From: a virus
DNA length: 64,000 nt
IMG/VR virus record: IMGVR_UViG_3300047550_003482
Location: 26,420 to 90,419 of that record
Strand: one strand, 5' to 3'
The notes beneath the pieces are model-generated. The model searched no databases. It was not told the DNA's origin and saw only the letters and a list, made by a program, of their open reading frames with translations. How positions within the stretch are numbered: position 1 is the stretch's first letter; every line of letters begins with the position of its first letter. The position numbers and the translations under genes are program-made. Shown in pieces: positions 7,683-48,466 of this stretch.

Positions 7683-7711
7683 AGTATAGTTTATTTGGAA
7701 TTATTTGTCAA
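7683..7711 (-). promoter_or_regulatory. Sigma-70-type early promoter
   Basis: TTGACA (7706-7711), 17-bp spacer, TATACT (7683-7688) on the minus strand. The -35 lies inside the 3' end of the preceding gene (7691-7987), so no terminator separates the units. Confidence 0.8.
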
Positions 7712-7987
7712 ATTTTTCCTCATAGATTCAATTATCTCTGCCGCCTCTTCCAATAAATCTGCAATACGATCTGGACGACCTTCCTGTACACTTTTTCTGT
7801 CTTTGATTGACCTGCGAATTTCTGCACGTTTTTTCAATCTATACACAATATCATTTGTGTCTTCCGTTTTGGTAGCGGGACATTCATCATCTTTTGTATT
7901 AATAAACAACACAGCATTACATGCAGAACAATACGTAAGATCAGGCATACCAAATGCTGATTCATCGTTTACCCACTGATGTTTCAT
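7691..7987 (-). CDS. Hypothetical protein with CxxC knuckle
   Basis: 98 residues. YCSACNAVLFI near residue 19 and a later CPATK could bind zinc. The second half is basic and helical (LKKRAEIRRSIKDRK), ending in an amphipathic helix. Start overlaps the stop of the AAWS protein gene (ATGA). Confidence 0.65.
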   Translation of the reverse strand: MKHQWVNDESAFGMPDLTYCSACNAVLFINTKDDECPATKTEDTNDIVYRLKKRAEIRRSIKDRKSVQEGRPDRIADLLEEAAEIIESMRKNLTNNSK

Positions 7988-8424
7988 AGTTCACACTCCA
8001 ATTCATTAATTCGTTCAAACGCAACCACTGCTGGTAGCAATAGAATTGCTGCTGGGTCTTCACTAAGTATAGACCAAACACGTAGATGATCACTGGGCAT
8101 TTCTAGGTATTTACTGGCGTCATCATATGCGATTAGGGCTGCTGCCGCACCCATAGCCGCACCCATAGCCGCATTCCAAGCCGTATCCCGAGCCGCATGC
8201 AAAGTCACACTCAAAGCCGCATCCCACGCCGCAAGCCAAGCCGCACTCCAAGCCGCATCCCGAGCCGCACTCCAAGCCGCACTCCAAGCCGCACTCCAAG
8301 CCGCATCCCGAGCCGCATGCCGAGCCACACCCCAAAACGCATCCCAAATTTCAGGATGTGACTTTACTGACTCAAGTACCCGATCAATATGATGGGCATT
8401 AGGTAAGTAGCTCCATGCGTTCAT
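7984..8424 (-). CDS. AAWS-repeat protein, copy 2
   Basis: 146 residues from ATG at 8424, which overlaps the stop of copy 1 and follows GGAGTG. Layout: conserved head (AWSYLPNAHHIDRVLE, SHPEIWDA), about 65 residues of four-residue repeats of the type AAWS/AARD, and a conserved tail (IAYDDASKYLEM, LPAVVAFERINELE). The repeat would form a long helix with Trp on one face. DNA repeats are 12 bp, so all three minus-strand frames are open here; the flanks shared with copy 1 and the overlaps fix this frame. Function unknown. Confidence 0.8.
   Translation of the reverse strand: MNAWSYLPNAHHIDRVLESVKSHPEIWDAFWGVARHAARDAAWSAAWSAAWSAARDAAWSAAWLAAWDAALSVTLHAARDTAWNAAMGAAMGAAAALIAYDDASKYLEMPSDHLRVWSILSEDPAAILLLPAVVAFERINELECEL
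8137..8340 (-). repeat. 12-bp tandem repeat array, copy 2
   Basis: Imperfect units such as GCGGCTTGGAGT and GCGGCTCGGGAT read on the minus strand, each encoding A-A-W-S or A-A-R-D. The array lies wholly inside the coding region 7984-8424 and differs in unit order and number from the array at 8577-8755. Confidence 0.85.
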
Positions 8425-8834
8425 ACACACTCCAATTCATTAATTCGTTCAAACGCAACCACTGCTGGTAGCAATAGAATTGCTGCTGGGTCTTCACTGA
8501 GAATTGCCCAGATACGTAGATGATCACTGGGCATTTCTAGGTATTTACTGGCGTCATCATATGCGATTAGGGCTGCTGCCGCACCCATAGCCGCACCCAT
8601 AGCCGCATGCCGAGCCGCACTCCAAGCCGCATCCCGAGCCGCATCCCGAGCCGCATGCCGAGCCGCACTCCAAGCCGCATCCCGAGCCGCACTCCAAGCC
8701 GCACTCCAAGCCGCATTCCAAGCCGCACTCCAAGCCGCATTCCAAGCCGCATCCCAAATTTCAGGATGTGATTTCAATGACTCAAGTACCCGATCAATGT
8801 GATGGGCATTAGGCAAATGACTCCATGCACTCAT
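8421..8834 (-). CDS. AAWS-repeat protein, copy 1
   Basis: 137 residues. Same head, repeat and tail as the downstream copy: AWSHLPNAHHIDRVLES, then AAWNAAWSAAW-type repeats (residues about 28-83), then MGAAAALIAYDDASKYLEM. The tails of the two copies are almost identical at DNA level, so this is a recent tandem duplication. Start overlaps the stop of the RNA ligase gene. The C-terminal codons of ELECV contain GGAGTG, which serves as the ribosome site of copy 2. Confidence 0.8.
   Translation of the reverse strand: MSAWSHLPNAHHIDRVLESLKSHPEIWDAAWNAAWSAAWNAAWSAAWSAARDAAWSAARHAARDAARDAAWSAARHAAMGAAMGAAAALIAYDDASKYLEMPSDHLRIWAILSEDPAAILLLPAVVAFERINELECV
8577..8755 (-). repeat. 12-bp tandem repeat array, copy 1
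   Basis: Units of GCGGCTTGGAGT type inside the coding region 8421-8834. The 12-bp period keeps frame when units are gained or lost, giving in-frame length variation. Confidence 0.85.
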
Positions 8835-9748
8835 ACAGCATTCTCCATGTAGTTCCTAACCCACTCCAACCGTTGTTGTTCGGTCATCGCGGTATATTCT
8901 ACAATGTTTTCACGAATATGGTCGATCAACCCATGATATTCTTCATCAATGTTACGCTTGACATCGTTCTTCAGGTCTACCAACTTATCGGTACGCGGAT
9001 TACGAGCCACCCACTTGTTTACCAAGTAATACGGGCTCTTGATCTTGGTAGATACTCCATCATCCGTGTAAATTACATAACCTTCGTGACGGCACTCCTT
9101 TACCATTTCCTGAACACGGCCCATGTTGGTTACCGTACATTCAGGCGTATAGCAACCCAATTCTTGCGCCAATTCACGCAAGATAAAGCTATCATGCTGT
9201 ACCCGTGAACCCCACACATTTTCACGATAACCCAACAAATACATGCCTTCTTTCTCAGGAACAATGTGCGGATCGTCAACATGACAACATTCAAACATGA
9301 AGGTCATGCCACGCAAATCACTACGGCTGAACACCAAACACCAGTCCTGATAGTTATACTTTTGACGGATCAATTGCTTGACCATTTCAACGTATTCGCT
9401 ATCCAATGAACCAGTAGTGCTGATCAACAGATCACCATTGTACCAAGTAACGGATGCCATAAAGCCATTGACTTTACGGAAAGCAGTTACCTTGGTATCA
9501 AAGCCAATTTTAGGAGCACGGCTTTCAATACCGAAGTTATAGATTTTTTGAAATGGATATGCTACGATATTAAATTCGTCAGTAATGACCGCACCACGAC
9601 AATGCTCTAAATATTCGTTCCATGTGTTGTTAAAAAATACAGTTTTTTTGTACTTTAATACGGAAAGTTCTGGATAGATAGTTGATTTCTTCATTGAAAC
9701 CAATTTAGGATTATTCAAAACATACTGTTTCAATTTTTCTTGGAACAT
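8831..9748 (-). CDS. rnlA: T4 RNA ligase 1-family ATP-dependent RNA ligase
   Basis: 305 residues. Nucleotidyltransferase motif I is FRKVNGFMASV with Lys92 as the adenylated lysine (K-x-N-G). The upstream CRGAVI (Arg51) matches the conserved R-G before the active site in T4 Rnl1. Later blocks MTFMFECCHVDDPHIV and HEGYVIYTDDGVSTKIKSPYY match motifs IIIa and IV-V (E-G-x-V, then K-x-K). It joins RNA ends; in T4 this repairs host tRNAs cut by anticodon nucleases. No Pnk partner is visible in this window. Length is shorter than T4 Rnl1 (374), mostly at the C terminus. Confidence 0.9.
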   Translation of the reverse strand: MFQEKLKQYVLNNPKLVSMKKSTIYPELSVLKYKKTVFFNNTWNEYLEHCRGAVITDEFNIVAYPFQKIYNFGIESRAPKIGFDTKVTAFRKVNGFMASVTWYNGDLLISTTGSLDSEYVEMVKQLIRQKYNYQDWCLVFSRSDLRGMTFMFECCHVDDPHIVPEKEGMYLLGYRENVWGSRVQHDSFILRELAQELGCYTPECTVTNMGRVQEMVKECRHEGYVIYTDDGVSTKIKSPYYLVNKWVARNPRTDKLVDLKNDVKRNIDEEYHGLIDHIRENIVEYTAMTEQQRLEWVRNYMENAV

Positions 9749-9873: not shown

Positions 9874-10560
9874 ATGAATATTTATTACGTTTATGCCTGG
9901 CTTAGAAATGATGGCACACCATATTATATAGGCAAAGGCAAAGGGAACAGAGCATATTTAAAAGGTCGGTTGTTCAAACCTCTTGATTCAAGAAGAATCA
10001 TTATAGTTGAAGCCAATTTAACAGAAATAGGAGCACTTGCGTTAGAACGTCGAATGATTCGTTGGTACGGACGAGAAGATTTAGGTACGGGTATTCTTAA
10101 AAATAAAACTGATGGAGGTGATGGTGTAACCAACACTCGCCTGACCCCGAAACAAAAACTTGCAAAAGGTCGTAAAAAAGATCAGCATTCAAATTTTGGT
10201 AAATTTGGTTCAGAAAATAGAGCAGCAAAAGAATACATAGTTATTACGCCAAATAGCCAACTCATCAAAATCAAAGGATTACATCAGTTTTGTAAGGAAA
10301 ATAATTTGTTATTGTCTAACGTTTCTTGGCACATAAATGGTGAAAACAAAAACGGAAAAATATTAAGCAATGTCTGTGGATATAGATTTTTTAAATATTC
10401 TGAAGAATTGCTTAAGAAATTCCAAGAACATATACCTCCATTTATTAAACCAAAACGAGGATCAGGAAAAATTAAATTTATTTGTAGATTGTCTGATAAA
10501 AAAGAATTAAGTAAGGCATCTGCTTCATTATGCATGCCTTACTTAAGGGAATATTTTTAA
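9874..10560 (+). CDS. GIY-YIG homing endonuclease (plus strand)
   Basis: 228 residues. N-terminal [19 protein letters not shown] gives the GIY-YIG motif; [27 protein letters not shown] carries the catalytic region. A short GIY-YIG core is followed by a basic linker and C-terminal motifs such as [15 protein letters not shown] and GYRFFKYS, typical of modular homing nucleases with DNA-binding repeats. AAAGGAAC precedes the ATG. It lies antisense between the RNA ligase gene and the promoter at 10614-10642, suggesting insertion into an existing transcription unit. A terminator hairpin follows. Confidence 0.9.
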
Positions 10561-14592: not shown

Positions 14593-14823
14593 TCATACTA
14601 CCTTTCCAAGTACTCCTCGGATAAGACCGTCAAGTTCATGTTGATAGTCTTTTCCGATTCTACGTTTTTGCCAGATTGTTTCTAGCAGCACACGCATTTC
14701 CTCACCATCAACATATTTGGTATTATAATCCATCCCCCTATTTTCAAGTTCTTCAATTAGATCGTCAGTATCAAATTCTGACAAATCAACTTCAACTTCT
14801 GCGGTAACGTATTTCATTGGCAT
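14593..14823 (-). CDS. Small acidic conserved phage protein
   Basis: 76 residues. YVTAEVEVDLSEFDTDDLIEELENRG is a pattern I recall in many phages. GGAG lies 8 bases before the ATG. It overlaps the stop of the upstream NERI gene by one base. Confidence 0.7.
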   Translation of the reverse strand: MPMKYVTAEVEVDLSEFDTDDLIEELENRGMDYNTKYVDGEEMRVLLETIWQKRRIGKDYQHELDGLIRGVLGKVV

Positions 14824-15041
14824 TATTCTACTCCAAAATATTCTTTGATCATTTTACCGGGATATTCTCCACCATCATACGCATAGTTGCCAATCATAGC
14901 ACACTTTTGAATAATCAACTCGGCGAACGTTTGCATTTGCTTATAATTCCCGCCAATACCCCATCTACCCACTTTTATATCCTCACCAAAATCGGTGAGC
15001 ACTCCAGCCTGTTCAGCAAGTTCTTTAATTCGTTCGTTCAT
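14823..15041 (-). CDS. NERI-family small phage protein
   Basis: 72 residues. Opens NERIKELAEQAGVL, has FAELIIQKCAMIG in the middle and ends MIKEYFGVE. The C-terminal GGAGTAGAATAATG region encodes GVE and at the same time supplies the ribosome site of the next gene. First member of the tandem array on this side. Function unknown. Confidence 0.85.
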   Translation of the reverse strand: MNERIKELAEQAGVLTDFGEDIKVGRWGIGGNYKQMQTFAELIIQKCAMIGNYAYDGGEYPGKMIKEYFGVE

Positions 15042-15220
15042 TTACCTTGTCCTTGTTCAACAATCCGCATGATATGTTCGACCCATTCCGGATTACGATC
15101 AATAATTTCATCAATTACTGTATCCTGTTCAGCAAGACTGCGCTTATCTAGTGTGGGATTACGCAAACAGTCGATTATTTCATCCAAGGTTAGATTTTTA
15201 TCATTGCCGATCTTAATCAT
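15038..15220 (-). CDS. Small hypothetical protein
   Basis: 60 residues, acidic and helical (TLDEIIDCLRNPTLDKRS, EHIMRIVEQGQGK). Overlaps NERI genes on both sides by 4 bases. Confidence 0.6.
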   Translation of the reverse strand: MIKIGNDKNLTLDEIIDCLRNPTLDKRSLAEQDTVIDEIIDRNPEWVEHIMRIVEQGQGK

Positions 15221-15450
15221 TCTTCAACTCCTAAATGTTCAGCAATATATTTGCTTGCCAAGACACAACCGTTAGCTTCTTTAATATCACCATGCTCTTC
15301 ATATCCAACAGCAGCAACATCGCACATACGCATACACTCCCTAATAATTAGCTCGGCGAACTTCTCAAACTTGTGTTCAATACCAAGTCTTTCCATTTCG
15401 GGCTTGTGAAACCCAGCCTCGTTAAAAAGTTTTTCAATTCGTTTATTCAT
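15217..15450 (-). CDS. NERI-family small phage protein
   Basis: 77 residues from MNKRIEKLFNEAGFHK; the longer in-frame start overlaps the zinc-protein gene and is rejected. Core KFEKFAELIIRECMRMC and C-terminal IAEHLGVEE. Between core and tail it has a longer insert (AAVGYEEHGDIKEANG). Confidence 0.85.
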   Translation of the reverse strand: MNKRIEKLFNEAGFHKPEMERLGIEHKFEKFAELIIRECMRMCDVAAVGYEEHGDIKEANGCVLASKYIAEHLGVEE

Positions 15451-18184: not shown

Positions 18185-18384
18185 TTTTTAACTCCAAAGT
18201 ACATTTTCATTTGTTTTGCGGTTCGCTTACACAAGTCTAGTTCTTGTTTGGAATAAACCGGCATAACATTATTCACGTATGTAGCACATTCCCGCACAAT
18301 GGCTTCGGCGAATTTTATTTCTTGCTCTGTTGCTGCTGATCCATATACTTGTTCAGCAATCTGGCGAATTTTTTCGTTCATCAT
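18181..18384 (-). CDS. NERI-family small phage protein
   Basis: 67 residues: NEKIRQIAEQVYGSAA, core KFAEAIVRECATYV, tail QMKMYFGVKK. Two adjacent start codons; either Met fits. Confidence 0.83.
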   Translation of the reverse strand: MMNEKIRQIAEQVYGSAATEQEIKFAEAIVRECATYVNNVMPVYSKQELDLCKRTAKQMKMYFGVKK

Positions 18385-18587
18385 TCAACTCCAAAATGTC
18401 GATACAAAACACCCTTAGCCCACATACCGTCCTCAGCACCATCATCTAGCTGTGCGGCAGATTCGCGAATCAGTTCAGCGGCAAACTTATCAAAAACGTC
18501 TTCACTGACAACATACAAACCGTCACTCCGACGGTTCATCTTTGACATACCAGCACTTACAGCAAGTTCTCGGATACGTTCGTTCAT
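18381..18587 (-). CDS. NERI-family small phage protein
   Basis: 68 residues: NERIRELAVSAGMSKM, core KFAAELIRESAAQL, tail LYRHFGVE. The conserved Cys of the core is Ser here. Confidence 0.84.
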   Translation of the reverse strand: MNERIRELAVSAGMSKMNRRSDGLYVVSEDVFDKFAAELIRESAAQLDDGAEDGMWAKGVLYRHFGVE

Positions 18588-37983: not shown

Positions 37984-38295
37984 TTACTCCACCGCCCGTA
38001 GTTGATACTTTACACCTTCGATTTCAATAATTTTACCATTACAATTATTTTTCTTCATGCGATTGTTGAATTCCTCCTCTGTCAACTCTTTGCCATTGAG
38101 GAACCAACGTTTGTTCCCATAGGCATATTCAACAGCAGGCCCATCTTCACGATGACGTTCCCCATTGAGATACCAATATTTGTCCCCATTAGCATAATCA
38201 AGGGCAGGACCATCCTCTCGATGAGGTTCGCCTTTGAGGAACCAATGTTTGCTCCCGTTCTCATAGACCCTGACCTTATATTCTTTAAAATTCAT
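37984..38295 (-). CDS. MORN-like repeat protein
   Basis: 103 residues with three repeats of the type ENGSKHWFLKGEPHREDGPA: residues about 10-30, 31-51 and 52-72, each with W-x-L-N/K-G-E and H-R-E-D-G-P-A. The DNA of the repeats is also similar. These beta-hairpin repeats resemble MORN-type toxin/antitoxin or binding modules found in diverse phages. The C-terminal 30 residues are charged and unrelated. Function unknown; likely a binding surface. Confidence 0.8.
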   Translation of the reverse strand: MNFKEYKVRVYENGSKHWFLKGEPHREDGPALDYANGDKYWYLNGERHREDGPAVEYAYGNKRWFLNGKELTEEEFNNRMKKNNCNGKIIEIEGVKYQLRAVE

Positions 38296-42180: not shown

Positions 42181-42380
42181 TCAACTCCAAAATGTTCTTT
42201 CAATCTATCACCTAACAAAGTTTCAATCGTTGCGGTTTCACTAACAAAGTTAGCACATTCCCGCACGATCAACTCGGCTAATTTTTCTGGGTTAAACTCC
42301 CTGATATCAAAAGAGTTTCCGCTGGAACCATAAAATTTCATCCCAGCTTGTTTGTAAAGTTCACGAATTCGTTCGTTCAC
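42177..42380 (-). CDS. NERI-family small phage protein
   Basis: 67 residues: NERIRELYKQAGMKFYG, core EKLAELIVRECANFV, tail RLKEHFGVE. Confidence 0.85.
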   Translation of the reverse strand: MNERIRELYKQAGMKFYGSSGNSFDIREFNPEKLAELIVRECANFVSETATIETLLGDRLKEHFGVE

Positions 42381-42628
42381 GATTCAACTCCGAAATGTTC
42401 TCTGATGGCCAGGTTGTTGCTCATAATTCCGTCAGAATATGCCGGGTTAGTTGATTTCAACATATCTGCGGAATTATAACTTACTCTCAGGCATTCCTGT
42501 ACAATCAACTCGGCGAACTTTTCCAAATCTGCCGGAGTAATTACCGCAGTGTCAATTCCCAAATGTTGCAGGTGTGCTTCAAATTTAATTTGAGCCTGCT
42601 TAGCCAGTTGAAAGATTCGTTCGTTCAT
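42377..42628 (-). CDS. NERI-family small phage protein
   Basis: 83 residues: NERIFQLAKQAQIKFE, core LEKFAELIVQECLRVS, tail AIREHFGVES. First gene behind the promoter at 42661-42689, which should drive the array to 40.85 kb. Confidence 0.85.
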   Translation of the reverse strand: MNERIFQLAKQAQIKFEAHLQHLGIDTAVITPADLEKFAELIVQECLRVSYNSADMLKSTNPAYSDGIMSNNLAIREHFGVES

Positions 42629-42738: not shown

Positions 42739-44109
42739 TTATGCCCTACTGTTTGCTCGGACTTGATCAAAGGTGTACTCAGTGATCAACTGTCCATTCT
42801 TGAACACAGTTTCTAGACAGTCCTCTGGCCAATCTTCAACGGCACTATGGTATTGACCATTGAAATTCTTGTACAGAGTAACTCTACCGGCCTTACTTAC
42901 TTTGCCCTTGTCAGTAATAGGATCCTTGTAAATAGGACGCCATTCTCCATTAATTTTTACAGCACTTGCCTTCATAGCAAACTTCTGAGTGTCACGATCA
43001 ACTTGTTGACAAAGTGCACCTCCCATTCCAAAGGTGATATTATCAGCACTATAACCCAATTCGGTCAGAGCGGCTAGTATATCATCAATAGATTGATAAT
43101 TTACGCCATCGCCTTGAATAATACGAACATGATTCAGAATCTTGTAGCCTTTGCTGTTAACTACGCTACCAAACTTACTATCTAAAATTTGGATCAATCT
43201 CTTGTTCACTTCAACTGGATCTCCGCTGTCAGGACGAATAACAACTGTAGCACCACTGTCAATGACCTGTTGGCGAAGTTCTTCACCCCAGAGTTTTTCT
43301 GCTGCGTTAAAGATGTCATAACTATCACTAACAACAGCGAGAATAGAGCCTGGACGAGCGAATTGAGCGAGCATATTCGCATATGCCTTTACCTCCCCGT
43401 CACGACCCCAACTCGTAATCGTAGAATGTTCGGCTGCGGGTATGGAAAAGCCAGCGACGCCTGCATTGTAAAACTCACGGGCATACAAAACACCAGTAAT
43501 AGTGTCAGTGCCCATGAAGTTAACCAAATGTGCTGCTGATCCAATACCAGATGTTTCTAAACTAGAAACTCCGCGGGCCGAAAAGTCATGAAGTTTAAAA
43601 TCAATAAGGCTAGGATCACCAGTACGCTCCAAATAGTTCAGAATAAGTTGACGAATAGTCCAACTCTGTGTTGCCACAGTAGTTGGATACCAAATAGCAC
43701 GTAGCAGAGCAGTTTCTAGCCAAGTTGTGAGCCAGAAACATTCTGGATCAGTGTTTTCAATTGTGGCAAGTACATTCTTAACCGGTACAACTGTTCCTTC
43801 TGGGACGGCTCGGATAACAACTGGGAGAAATCCACCGTGCTTATCCAGAATGTATTGCCATCCTTGGCGGTTAAAGGGCTCACCGTGTGCGGTAAGAATT
43901 TCTTCAGCAATTTCGATGTCTGCTTGAGTGATAGGCTCAAGCAGGTATTCCTTGATAAAAGCCTGTAGTCCGAAGAATACAGTTCTATCGTATCGACCCC
44001 CTCGACTTTCAATATACGAATAAACACCTGTAGTACCTAGTGGGTATTGCCATGCCATTGAACACTTGTAACTGTCCACATTCAAAATAATATTTTTTGC
44101 GAGTTTCAT
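42739..44109 (-). CDS. nadV: Nicotinamide phosphoribosyltransferase
   Basis: 456 residues. Family landmarks: FKLHDFSARGVSSLETSGIG (171-190), AHLVNFMGTDT, PAAEHSTITSWGRDGE with His228 (the residue phosphorylated in human NAMPT) and VVIRPDSGDPVE (289-300), which holds the PRPP-binding Arg and Asp. It converts nicotinamide and PRPP to NMN. With the NadM-Nudix protein 4 kb upstream this makes a complete two-step route to NAD, as described for phages that rebuild NAD after host NADase defences. It has its own terminator. Confidence 0.95.
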   Translation of the reverse strand: MKLAKNIILNVDSYKCSMAWQYPLGTTGVYSYIESRGGRYDRTVFFGLQAFIKEYLLEPITQADIEIAEEILTAHGEPFNRQGWQYILDKHGGFLPVVIRAVPEGTVVPVKNVLATIENTDPECFWLTTWLETALLRAIWYPTTVATQSWTIRQLILNYLERTGDPSLIDFKLHDFSARGVSSLETSGIGSAAHLVNFMGTDTITGVLYAREFYNAGVAGFSIPAAEHSTITSWGRDGEVKAYANMLAQFARPGSILAVVSDSYDIFNAAEKLWGEELRQQVIDSGATVVIRPDSGDPVEVNKRLIQILDSKFGSVVNSKGYKILNHVRIIQGDGVNYQSIDDILAALTELGYSADNITFGMGGALCQQVDRDTQKFAMKASAVKINGEWRPIYKDPITDKGKVSKAGRVTLYKNFNGQYHSAVEDWPEDCLETVFKNGQLITEYTFDQVRANSRA

Positions 44110-45350: not shown

Positions 45351-45872
45351 TTAACCTCCAAATTCTACTAATGTTACTGTGCCGCTTTCTCGGGCAACTC
45401 TTTTGGCAAATACTTCGATCATGTCAACGATAGTTTCCTGCTCACCGCCGGCAAGTCCGCATCCAATGTAGGGTAGGCCGAACCGTTTGCCAGGATAGAC
45501 AAAAGCCAACTTTTCCAAAATCAATTGAAAGGCAATGTACTCAAACACATCAGTACCTTGACTCATATTGTACTGAGTGTAGGCATTGACGATCATGAAT
45601 TTGCCATTAGTGAATTCAGGATATACCACGGTATAGTTACCGAGTTTATTGTAATCACCCTTTTCAGTTTCATTATCAAAGAGAGCCGCTGCCGGATAAC
45701 GTTCACGAATTTCTCGGGCGATACCTCCACCCATGGTATTGAAACAATTACAACCATGAATGATAACATCAAACTCGCCTGCTTCCGCTAGGTCAAGTAG
45801 ATTACCTTTAGCATGTTTCAATGCTGGCTTTGGAAAATCGATGGGATTTTTCGTATTGGTATAGTGATTCAT
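45351..45872 (-). CDS. Macro-domain protein (ADP-ribose-1''-phosphatase type)
   Basis: 173 residues. HAKGNLLDLAEAGEFDVIIH and HGCNCFNTMGGGIAREIRER (39-58) form the ADP-ribose loop; FGLPYIGCGLAGGEQETIVD is the second loop. Macro domains of this type remove phosphate from ADP-ribose 1''-phosphate or remove ADP-ribose from targets. Next to NAD genes this suggests handling of NAD-derived products such as tRNA-splicing by-products or ADP-ribosylation. Confidence 0.88.
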   Translation of the reverse strand: MNHYTNTKNPIDFPKPALKHAKGNLLDLAEAGEFDVIIHGCNCFNTMGGGIAREIRERYPAAALFDNETEKGDYNKLGNYTVVYPEFTNGKFMIVNAYTQYNMSQGTDVFEYIAFQLILEKLAFVYPGKRFGLPYIGCGLAGGEQETIVDMIEVFAKRVARESGTVTLVEFGG

Positions 45873-46159
45873 TCTTCAACTCCGAAATGTTTCTTAATCT
45901 GCTTGGCATTTTTCTTTAGTAGGAACCCACCATATTGTTTGACTGCTTCTTCATAGCCTTCCATCCAATCAGTGGTCTTGTCGTGGCCTGTTGATTCTGT
46001 CATCCTGATTGTGCGTTGATTGTCACCGTTTGTTTCTAATACTTGAGCACATTCCCGAACAATCAATTCGGCGAACTTTTCCAAATCGCCTTCACCGTAG
46101 CCTAGTCGGTCAATTTTACAATCAGCCTGTTCAGCAAGTTCCTCAATTCGTTTGTTCAT
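45869..46159 (-). CDS. NERI-family small phage protein
   Basis: 96 residues, the longest simple member: NKRIEELAEQADCKIDRLG, core LEKFAELIVRECAQVL, a long charged insert, tail QIKKHFGVEE. Confidence 0.84.
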   Translation of the reverse strand: MNKRIEELAEQADCKIDRLGYGEGDLEKFAELIVRECAQVLETNGDNQRTIRMTESTGHDKTTDWMEGYEEAVKQYGGFLLKKNAKQIKKHFGVEE

Positions 46160-47437: not shown

Positions 47438-48466
47438 TTAAGCTCCTACAAAATGTTGAATAATTTCCCAATGATCTTCAAAACATTCGTCTGACTTAAC
47501 ATCTACTAGTGGCACCCAACGGGCACGATCAGCATCATCTTGTCCCTTAACCTTAGGCAGTTCACCATCAGGCAATACGATCTTGAAGGCATGCGTGATT
47601 GTCCTGCCCCTAGCACTACGTTCAACCGCATCAAATACTTTAACATCTTTGATACTTCCTGTCAAGACTGGAGCAGGAACTTTGATACCAGTTTCTTCAC
47701 GCAATTCACGAATGGCAGCATCACGGACACTACGGTCACTAGCAGCATTCAAGAATCCACCAGGCAATGCCCACAATCCCTTACCAGGTTCACTACGACG
47801 GCGAATCATCAATACGTGACCACTCTGAATCACTACTGAATCCACAGTAACGAATACTGGAGGATAGGGCAGACTTTCATATTGCTTACGATAATTCGCA
47901 ATGAATTCACGTTCACGGACAACCTGCTCATATGCCTGTGTTTCCTTGAAACTATTGAGAAACTGCATTGTGGATTGCGGAACTACTCCACGTAGGAAGT
48001 TTAGATTAGCATCACGACGGAAATAAATGTCGCGGATATCAGTAGCGTTCAGTGGCTCAATCAGTTCTACATCCACACGCTCCCATTGTGGGAACATCTT
48101 GAGATAGAAAGTGGTTTCGTCCTTATCGTGTCCAATGATACCATCCCTGGCACCAATAATACGATACTTGCTGTGGATAGCTTGTACACGGGTAGCCCAA
48201 GCCTGATCGTTGTAAATGGTGTCGATGTTGTGGTCAATATGAATTGAACATGTAGGATCACCTACACCACGCAAAGCACCAATCAACATGGACTCACGTT
48301 CTTTGCTGGTAAACGGATTCTTGTAGGTACGTGGTTGATCCGCACTACCTACGATAATTACAACTTGACGAGCCAATTCAGTGGCACGACGAATAGTTTC
48401 AATATGTGCAGTATGCACTGGTTGAAACCTGCCAATATATACTAGTGTACCGTACTTCTTAGACAT
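47438..48466 (-). CDS. nadM: Bifunctional NMN adenylyltransferase / Nudix hydrolase
   Basis: 342 residues. Domain 1 (about 1-185) has GRFQPVHTAHIETIRRA (12-28), the HxGH-like nucleotidyltransferase motif in its NadM form (H-T-A-H), and ATDIRDIYFR near its end. Domain 2 has LWALPGGFLN (231-240) and IRELREETGI (252-261), the core of the Nudix box; the upstream Glu of the usual box is not visible. NadM makes NAD from NMN and ATP; the Nudix half may hydrolyse ADP-ribose or its derivatives. Partner of nadV. Confidence 0.95.
   Translation of the reverse strand: MSKKYGTLVYIGRFQPVHTAHIETIRRATELARQVVIIVGSADQPRTYKNPFTSKERESMLIGALRGVGDPTCSIHIDHNIDTIYNDQAWATRVQAIHSKYRIIGARDGIIGHDKDETTFYLKMFPQWERVDVELIEPLNATDIRDIYFRRDANLNFLRGVVPQSTMQFLNSFKETQAYEQVVREREFIANYRKQYESLPYPPVFVTVDSVVIQSGHVLMIRRRSEPGKGLWALPGGFLNAASDRSVRDAAIRELREETGIKVPAPVLTGSIKDVKVFDAVERSARGRTITHAFKIVLPDGELPKVKGQDDADRARWVPLVDVKSDECFEDHWEIIQHFVGA

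What the first reader, a model, noticed from the sequence alone, without database searches (positions are those of the whole stretch)
7984..8834. Twin AAWS-repeat proteins with in-frame minisatellites
Two adjacent paralogues share nearly identical ends but differ in number and order of 12-bp units encoding AAWS/AARD. The repeat leaves three frames open. Such a helix with regular Trp could insert in membranes or form filaments, and length can change by slippage.
Basis: seen in the sequence. Interest (0 to 1): 0.66.

Follow-up and report, generated by a model that had tools for sequence, protein, structure and literature searches.

The report
Expanding phage family of variable helix proteins
Two neighbouring phage genes, each with a 12-base coding repeat between fixed ends, belong to an unnamed protein family present in up to about 26 copies per phage contig, whose middles change by gaining, losing and swapping repeat units while the ends are kept, which looks like rapid diversification of a host-facing protein.

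Summary
In detail: two minus-strand genes (8421-8834, 7984-8424) share conserved ends and differ in number and order of 12-bp units (GCG GCT NNG NNT; AAWS, AARD and others). They sit in an ATGA-coupled operon between a T4-type RNA ligase and a 98-aa gene. They belong to a family with no Pfam or NCBIfam match above cut-off and no PDB relative. It was found only in IMG/VR virus contigs: 122 distinct full copies in the loci held, 1-5 tandem genes at the RNA-ligase site in relatives, and about 26 copies in one 78-kb contig. The ends are under purifying selection (dN/dS about 0.14). In the repeats, silent sites are nearly frozen while residues 3 and 4 of each unit vary (replacement above silent diversity in 39 of 40 phages), with different Ala codon pairs in different lineages. 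Near-identical contigs differ by one exact 12-bp unit and by an exact two-gene deletion (assembly error not excluded). AlphaFold2 gives one 68-residue helix. Membrane and filament ideas are not supported: the repeat has no net amphipathicity and carries Arg. Best reading: a fast-diversifying, accordion-like family of helical interaction proteins, perhaps counter-defence. Function is inferred, not shown.

The parts
8421..8834 (-). Twin B gene, 137 aa
   Evidence: ORF with ATG start overlapping the RNA ligase stop (ATGA); family profile E 9e-58
7984..8424 (-). Twin A gene, 146 aa (ATG at 8424, ATGA overlap with twin B stop)
8578..8757 (-). Twin B repeat array, about 15 units of 12 bp (AAWS/AAWN/AARD/AARH/AAMG)
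   Evidence: TRF; codons
8144..8347 (-). Twin A repeat array, about 17 units of 12 bp, partly degenerate
   Evidence: TRF; codons
8748..8834 (-). Twin B N-module (MSAWSHLPNAHHIDRVLESLKSHPEIWDA)
   Evidence: conserved across the family
8338..8424 (-). Twin A N-module
8421..8576 (-). Twin B C-module (AALIAYDDASKYLEMPSDHLRIWAILSEDPAAILLLPAVVAFERINELECV)
7984..8142 (-). Twin A C-module
8831..9748 (-). T4-type RNA ligase 1, upstream operon partner; same neighbour in the window's clade
   Evidence: PF09511 E 7e-14, phrog_562 E 5e-50; relatives
7691..7987 (-). 98-aa gene with KRAEIRR...DRIADLLEEAA motif, downstream partner; in L096/L097 this motif lies in the same reading frame behind a family member

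Best explanation
Shown: the twins are members of a phage-borne multigene family with a conserved N-module and C-module joined by a variable, predicted helical middle. Genes are commonly chained by ATGA stop/start overlaps. Shown at contig level: tandem copies differ in number between near-identical contigs, middles are chimeric between alleles, and a 12-bp unit is gained or lost in frame. Inferred from codon patterns: arrays arose or were re-founded independently in several lineages, are homogenised by unequal recombination or slippage, and residues 3 and 4 of each unit are kept diverse by selection. Inferred function: the long helix presents a changeable series of side chains that binds a changing partner, most likely a host or rival-phage factor (counter-defence or inhibitor type), and tandem copies provide dosage and a reservoir of variants, as in gene-accordion adaptation.
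For: Family and arrays: 1-5 copies at the same RNA-ligase site; 31 profile matches, about 26 genes, in a 77.7-kb contig; 26 matches, about 25 genes, in a 103-kb contig. Of 57 adjacent gene pairs 37 overlap as ATGA; SD-like motif before 72 of 117 starts. Purifying selection at the ends: twins dN 0.033, dS 0.243; 17 family pairs median dN/dS 0.19. Frozen silent sites and variable replacement sites: window units depart from consensus 0, 1, 0 times at nt 3, 6, 12 and 12, 14, 11 times at nt 7, 10, 11 in 25 units; replacement exceeds silent diversity in 39 of 40 phages; nine different Ala codon pairs. Array silent sites are almost identical between twins although their ends have dS 0.24, so arrays were homogenised after duplication. 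Turnover: L035 and L041 are identical over 5707 bp, differ by an exact 847-bp (two-gene) deletion, then match with 2 mismatches in 5575 bp; L035 and L036 differ by one 12-bp unit; L039 has 2 genes and L050 one; L039 gene 1 is a chimera of L032-type and L049-type middles. Precedent for amplification of counter-defence genes in phage: tifA in T4 (PMC9391042) and SegB-driven amplification (PMC13096335). Some arrays sit near RNA ligase or NAMPT genes.
Against: No functional data. Twenty near-identical contig pairs have identical arrays, so turnover is not constant. Some members have non-repetitive, Ala-poor middles (L034, L042, L052, L053), so the repeat is not needed by the family. RNA ligase and NAMPT neighbours are common phage genes and are weak evidence for counter-defence. 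PADLOC gives no hit (that library holds defence proteins, not counter-defence). Copy-number differences between metagenome contigs could in part be assembly collapse.
Confidence: 0.42

Rival explanations
1. The N- and C-modules carry the function and the middle is a neutral Ala-rich helical spacer that simply tolerates slippage.
For: Middles vary from 23 to 90 residues and some are not repetitive; only the ends are strongly conserved.
Against: Relaxed constraint predicts replacement changes at most as common as silent ones; inside units replacement changes clearly exceed silent ones in 39 of 40 phages.
Confidence: 0.3
2. The repeat is mainly a DNA element (recombination or binding site) that happens to lie in a coding frame.
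For: Silent sites are almost invariant within an array while coding residues vary.
Against: The silent bases differ between lineages (GCGGCT, GCGGCA, GCGGCG, GCTGCT, GCCGCT and others), so no common DNA motif is kept; the reading frame and the AAxx register are kept.
Confidence: 0.08
3. Residues 3 and 4 are diversified by a retroelement (DGR) that mutates adenines against a template.
For: Variable bases fall at NGG and NNT, as AGG and AAT template codons would give.
Against: No reverse transcriptase in 16 phage records, window genome included; no second template copy; A at nt 6 of GCGGCA arrays is mostly unchanged. Several of these records may be fragments.
Confidence: 0.03
4. A virion or assembly protein: a helix of adjustable length acting as ruler, scaffold or filament.
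For: A single long helix is predicted; length changes by fixed steps.
Against: Genes lie near RNA ligase, NAMPT and DNA ligase rather than recognised structural genes; many length variants coexist in one genome; no convincing structural-protein match (weak phrog_342 hit only).
Confidence: 0.08
5. A membrane-inserting Trp helix.
For: Regular Trp.
Against: No net amphipathicity over the repeat (moment 0.04), mean hydrophobicity 0.14, Arg in many units.
Confidence: 0.03

Closest known systems
Segmental amplification of phage counter-defence genes (tifA in T4, PMC9391042; SegB-driven amplification in T6, PMC13096335)
   Same: Tandem copies of a phage gene gained and lost by recombination.
   Different: There, amplification was selected in the laboratory against a known defence; here copies are diverged in sequence, persist across many phages, and no defence target is known.
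Coding minisatellites with frozen silent sites and variable key residues (TAL effector repeats, PRDM9 zinc fingers; from own knowledge)
   Same: Near-identical DNA units whose few replacement positions vary; arrays change by unequal exchange.
   Different: The unit is 4 residues in one predicted continuous helix, no shared sequence or fold, and no code is known.
E. coli tolA intragenic repeat (PMC3477136, abstract only)
   Same: In-frame variable repeat in a protein, with variation between strains.
   Different: Single cell gene; here a phage multigene family with conserved end modules.
phrog_8332, phrog_18326, phrog_3416 (unknown function)
   Same: Profile matches mainly through the Ala-rich repeat (E down to 1e-12).
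   Different: The C-module is not matched by phrog_8332 beyond its first residues; no cultured phage carried the C-module credibly by tblastn.

Membership tests
Diversity-generating retroelement target | Reverse transcriptase in the same genome | tested here: not met
   PF00078 absent from 16 records, control genomes ring; some records may be fragments
Diversity-generating retroelement target | Invariant template repeat elsewhere in the genome | tested here: not met
   All 29 matches to the unit pattern lie in the two genes
phrog_8332 | Profile match over most of the family length | tested here: inconclusive
   Only positions 130-223 of 248 matched, compositionally biased Ala-rich part
Any Pfam or NCBIfam family | Score above curated cut-off | tested here: not met
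   No family shown above its cut-off for the twins
Accordion-like amplified phage gene | Tandem copy number differs between otherwise near-identical genomes | tested here: met
   L035/L041 (4 against 2 genes, flanks 99.96-100% identical) and L039/L050 (2 against 1); contig-level, assembly error not excluded
Accordion-like amplified phage gene | Amplification gives a growth advantage against a host barrier | not testable with these tools
   needs infection experiments
Known anti-phage defence protein | PADLOC profile match | tested here: not met
Membrane-active Trp helix | Amphipathic or hydrophobic helix | tested here: not met

The most novel reading that the evidence does not exclude
A phage protein family that diversifies itself without a dedicated mutator: slippage and recombination shuffle 4-residue units, and selection on the two variable residues per unit produces a modular, re-writable binding helix, with up to tens of alleles stored side by side in one genome.
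Probability: 0.3. Interest if true: 0.8.

Novelty: new variant of a known kind. Interest (0 to 1): 0.52.

Why it matters
Phage genomes are compact, and a family taking roughly a tenth or more of one contig, with conserved ends and a middle that changes faster in meaning than in silent sites, points to strong and changing selection. If the partner is a bacterial defence, these arrays would be a natural record of the arms race and a source of many ready-made inhibitors. If not, they are still a clean system for studying coding minisatellites outside eukaryotes. The test is simple because the ends give a reliable handle for finding every copy.

Tried and rejected
Overlapping-frame coding: rejected, other forward frames are closed in most relatives. 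DGR mutagenesis: rejected as far as tested. Homing endonuclease next to the operon (9874-10560, GIY-YIG-like) as general driver, by analogy with SegB: no relative of it found near the other arrays held. Empty site in Limnohabitans phage DC31: the shared DNA is only the small downstream gene's motif and its neighbour is not an RNA ligase. Bacterial homologues: none in GTDB genome contigs; plasmids none with one divergent member as query. Cultured phages: no credible match by tblastn, though BLAST's low-complexity filter masks the repeat. Solved structures and fold searches: nothing. Paper search for the peptide strings: nothing. First AlphaFold2 run with 14 sequences was poor (pTM 0.30) and was replaced.

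Full report
Observation. Both genes lie on the minus strand. Twin B is 8421-8834 and twin A 7984-8424; each has an N-module of about 29 residues, a middle of 4-residue units coded by 12-bp repeats, and a C-module of about 51 residues. The arrays stand far above chance (TRF scores 162-239, whole-gene duplication 1258) and their pattern occurs nowhere else in the 90-kb virus record. RNA ligase, twin B, twin A and the 98-aa gene are joined by ATGA stop/start overlaps (8831-8834, 8421-8424, 7984-7987), as in a translationally coupled operon.

Family. Searching IMG/VR with the twin and then with growing alignments gave 8, 41 and 79 loci, and 122 distinct full members in the sequence held. They share a start like AWSHLPNAxHIDRVL and an end like ALIAYDDxxxYL...PAAxLLLPAV. 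Nothing was found in GTDB genome contigs, in plasmids with one member, or credibly in cultured phages. Pfam, NCBIfam, PDB and PADLOC give nothing above cut-off; PHROGs match mainly through the Ala-rich part.

Copy number. At the RNA-ligase site relatives carry 1 to 5 copies. One 77.7-kb contig has 31 profile matches, which are about 26 genes once split matches are merged by eye, and a 103-kb contig about 25. Of 57 adjacent pairs 37 overlap as ATGA.

Turnover. L035 and L041 are identical for 5707 bp, then L041 lacks exactly two genes (847 bp), then they match for 5575 bp with 2 differences; L035 and L036 differ by one 12-bp unit in otherwise near-identical sequence, apart from the very end of the L036 contig. 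L039 and L050 differ by one gene. L039 gene 1 joins a 49-nt stretch identical to the L032 type with stretches identical to the L049 type. Against this, 20 near-identical contig pairs carry identical arrays. These are metagenome assemblies, and repeats can be collapsed.

Selection. The ends are under purifying selection (twins dN 0.033, dS 0.243; family median dN/dS 0.19 over 17 pairs). Inside units the reverse holds: in the window 25 units depart from consensus once in all at silent positions 3, 6 and 12, but 37 times at positions 7, 10 and 11. Over 40 phages mean diversity is 0.27 at silent and 0.60 at replacement positions, replacement higher in 39; the phages are not all independent, but nine different Ala codon pairs occur, so the arrays were founded more than once. 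Units were chosen by the residues AA, which leaves positions 3, 6 and 12 free, so the choice does not cause the pattern. Ala codons in the window arrays (52 of 52 GCG or GCT) differ sharply from those in the ends (7 of 28; p 1e-13). The twins' arrays share silent bases although their ends have diverged at dS 0.24, which points to homogenisation. My reading is unequal exchange or slippage plus diversifying selection on residues 3 and 4; a formal codon-model test was not made.

Structure. With 104 family members AlphaFold2 gives a short helix 10-22, one helix 24-91, and helices 103-113 and 116-136 (mean pLDDT 88.6, pTM 0.50). No fold match. The 4-residue period makes the side-chain line wind round the helix, so there is no lasting hydrophobic face (moment 0.04).

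Mechanism and function. Shown: coding-type conservation at the ends, modular architecture, and contig-level variation in gene and unit number. Inferred: host-facing binding function. Neighbours in several lineages include RNA ligase and NAMPT, genes that can repair host-inflicted damage in other phages (own knowledge), but these are common phage genes and the link is weak. In L096/L097 the motif of the downstream 98-aa gene lies in one open frame behind a family member, suggesting that the two gene products are linked. Laboratory precedents for tandem amplification of phage counter-defence genes exist (PMC9391042, PMC13096335; abstracts read).

Verdict.

Noticed in passing
window 14823-15041, 15217-15450, 18381-18587, 42377-42628, 45869-46159 (and similar): A second dispersed family of small paralogues (MNERI/MNKRI...KFAELIVxEC...HFGVE); the same family surrounds the arrays in L037, L087, L100 and L123.
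   Followed up: partly
window 42739-44109 and 47438-48466: NAMPT (PF18127, PF04095) and a cytidylyltransferase-NUDIX protein (PF01467, PF00293): a likely phage NAD salvage pair; NAMPT also lies near arrays in L023 and L123.
   Followed up: partly
window 9874-10560: GIY-YIG-like homing endonuclease candidate on the opposite strand next to the RNA ligase (weak Pfam, PHROG matches).
   Followed up: partly
L023 2339-5492; L100 5219-5712: Another run of tandem small proteins ending in a FxLRWS/LKFS-like tail, next to this family.
   Followed up: no
L096/L097 4655-5389: Family member in one open frame with the KRAEIRR...DRIADLLEEAA motif, which is a separate gene (7691-7987) in the window; Limnohabitans phage DC31 also has that motif.
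   Followed up: partly
window 38093-38256: A 69-bp tandem repeat, 2.4 copies.
   Followed up: no
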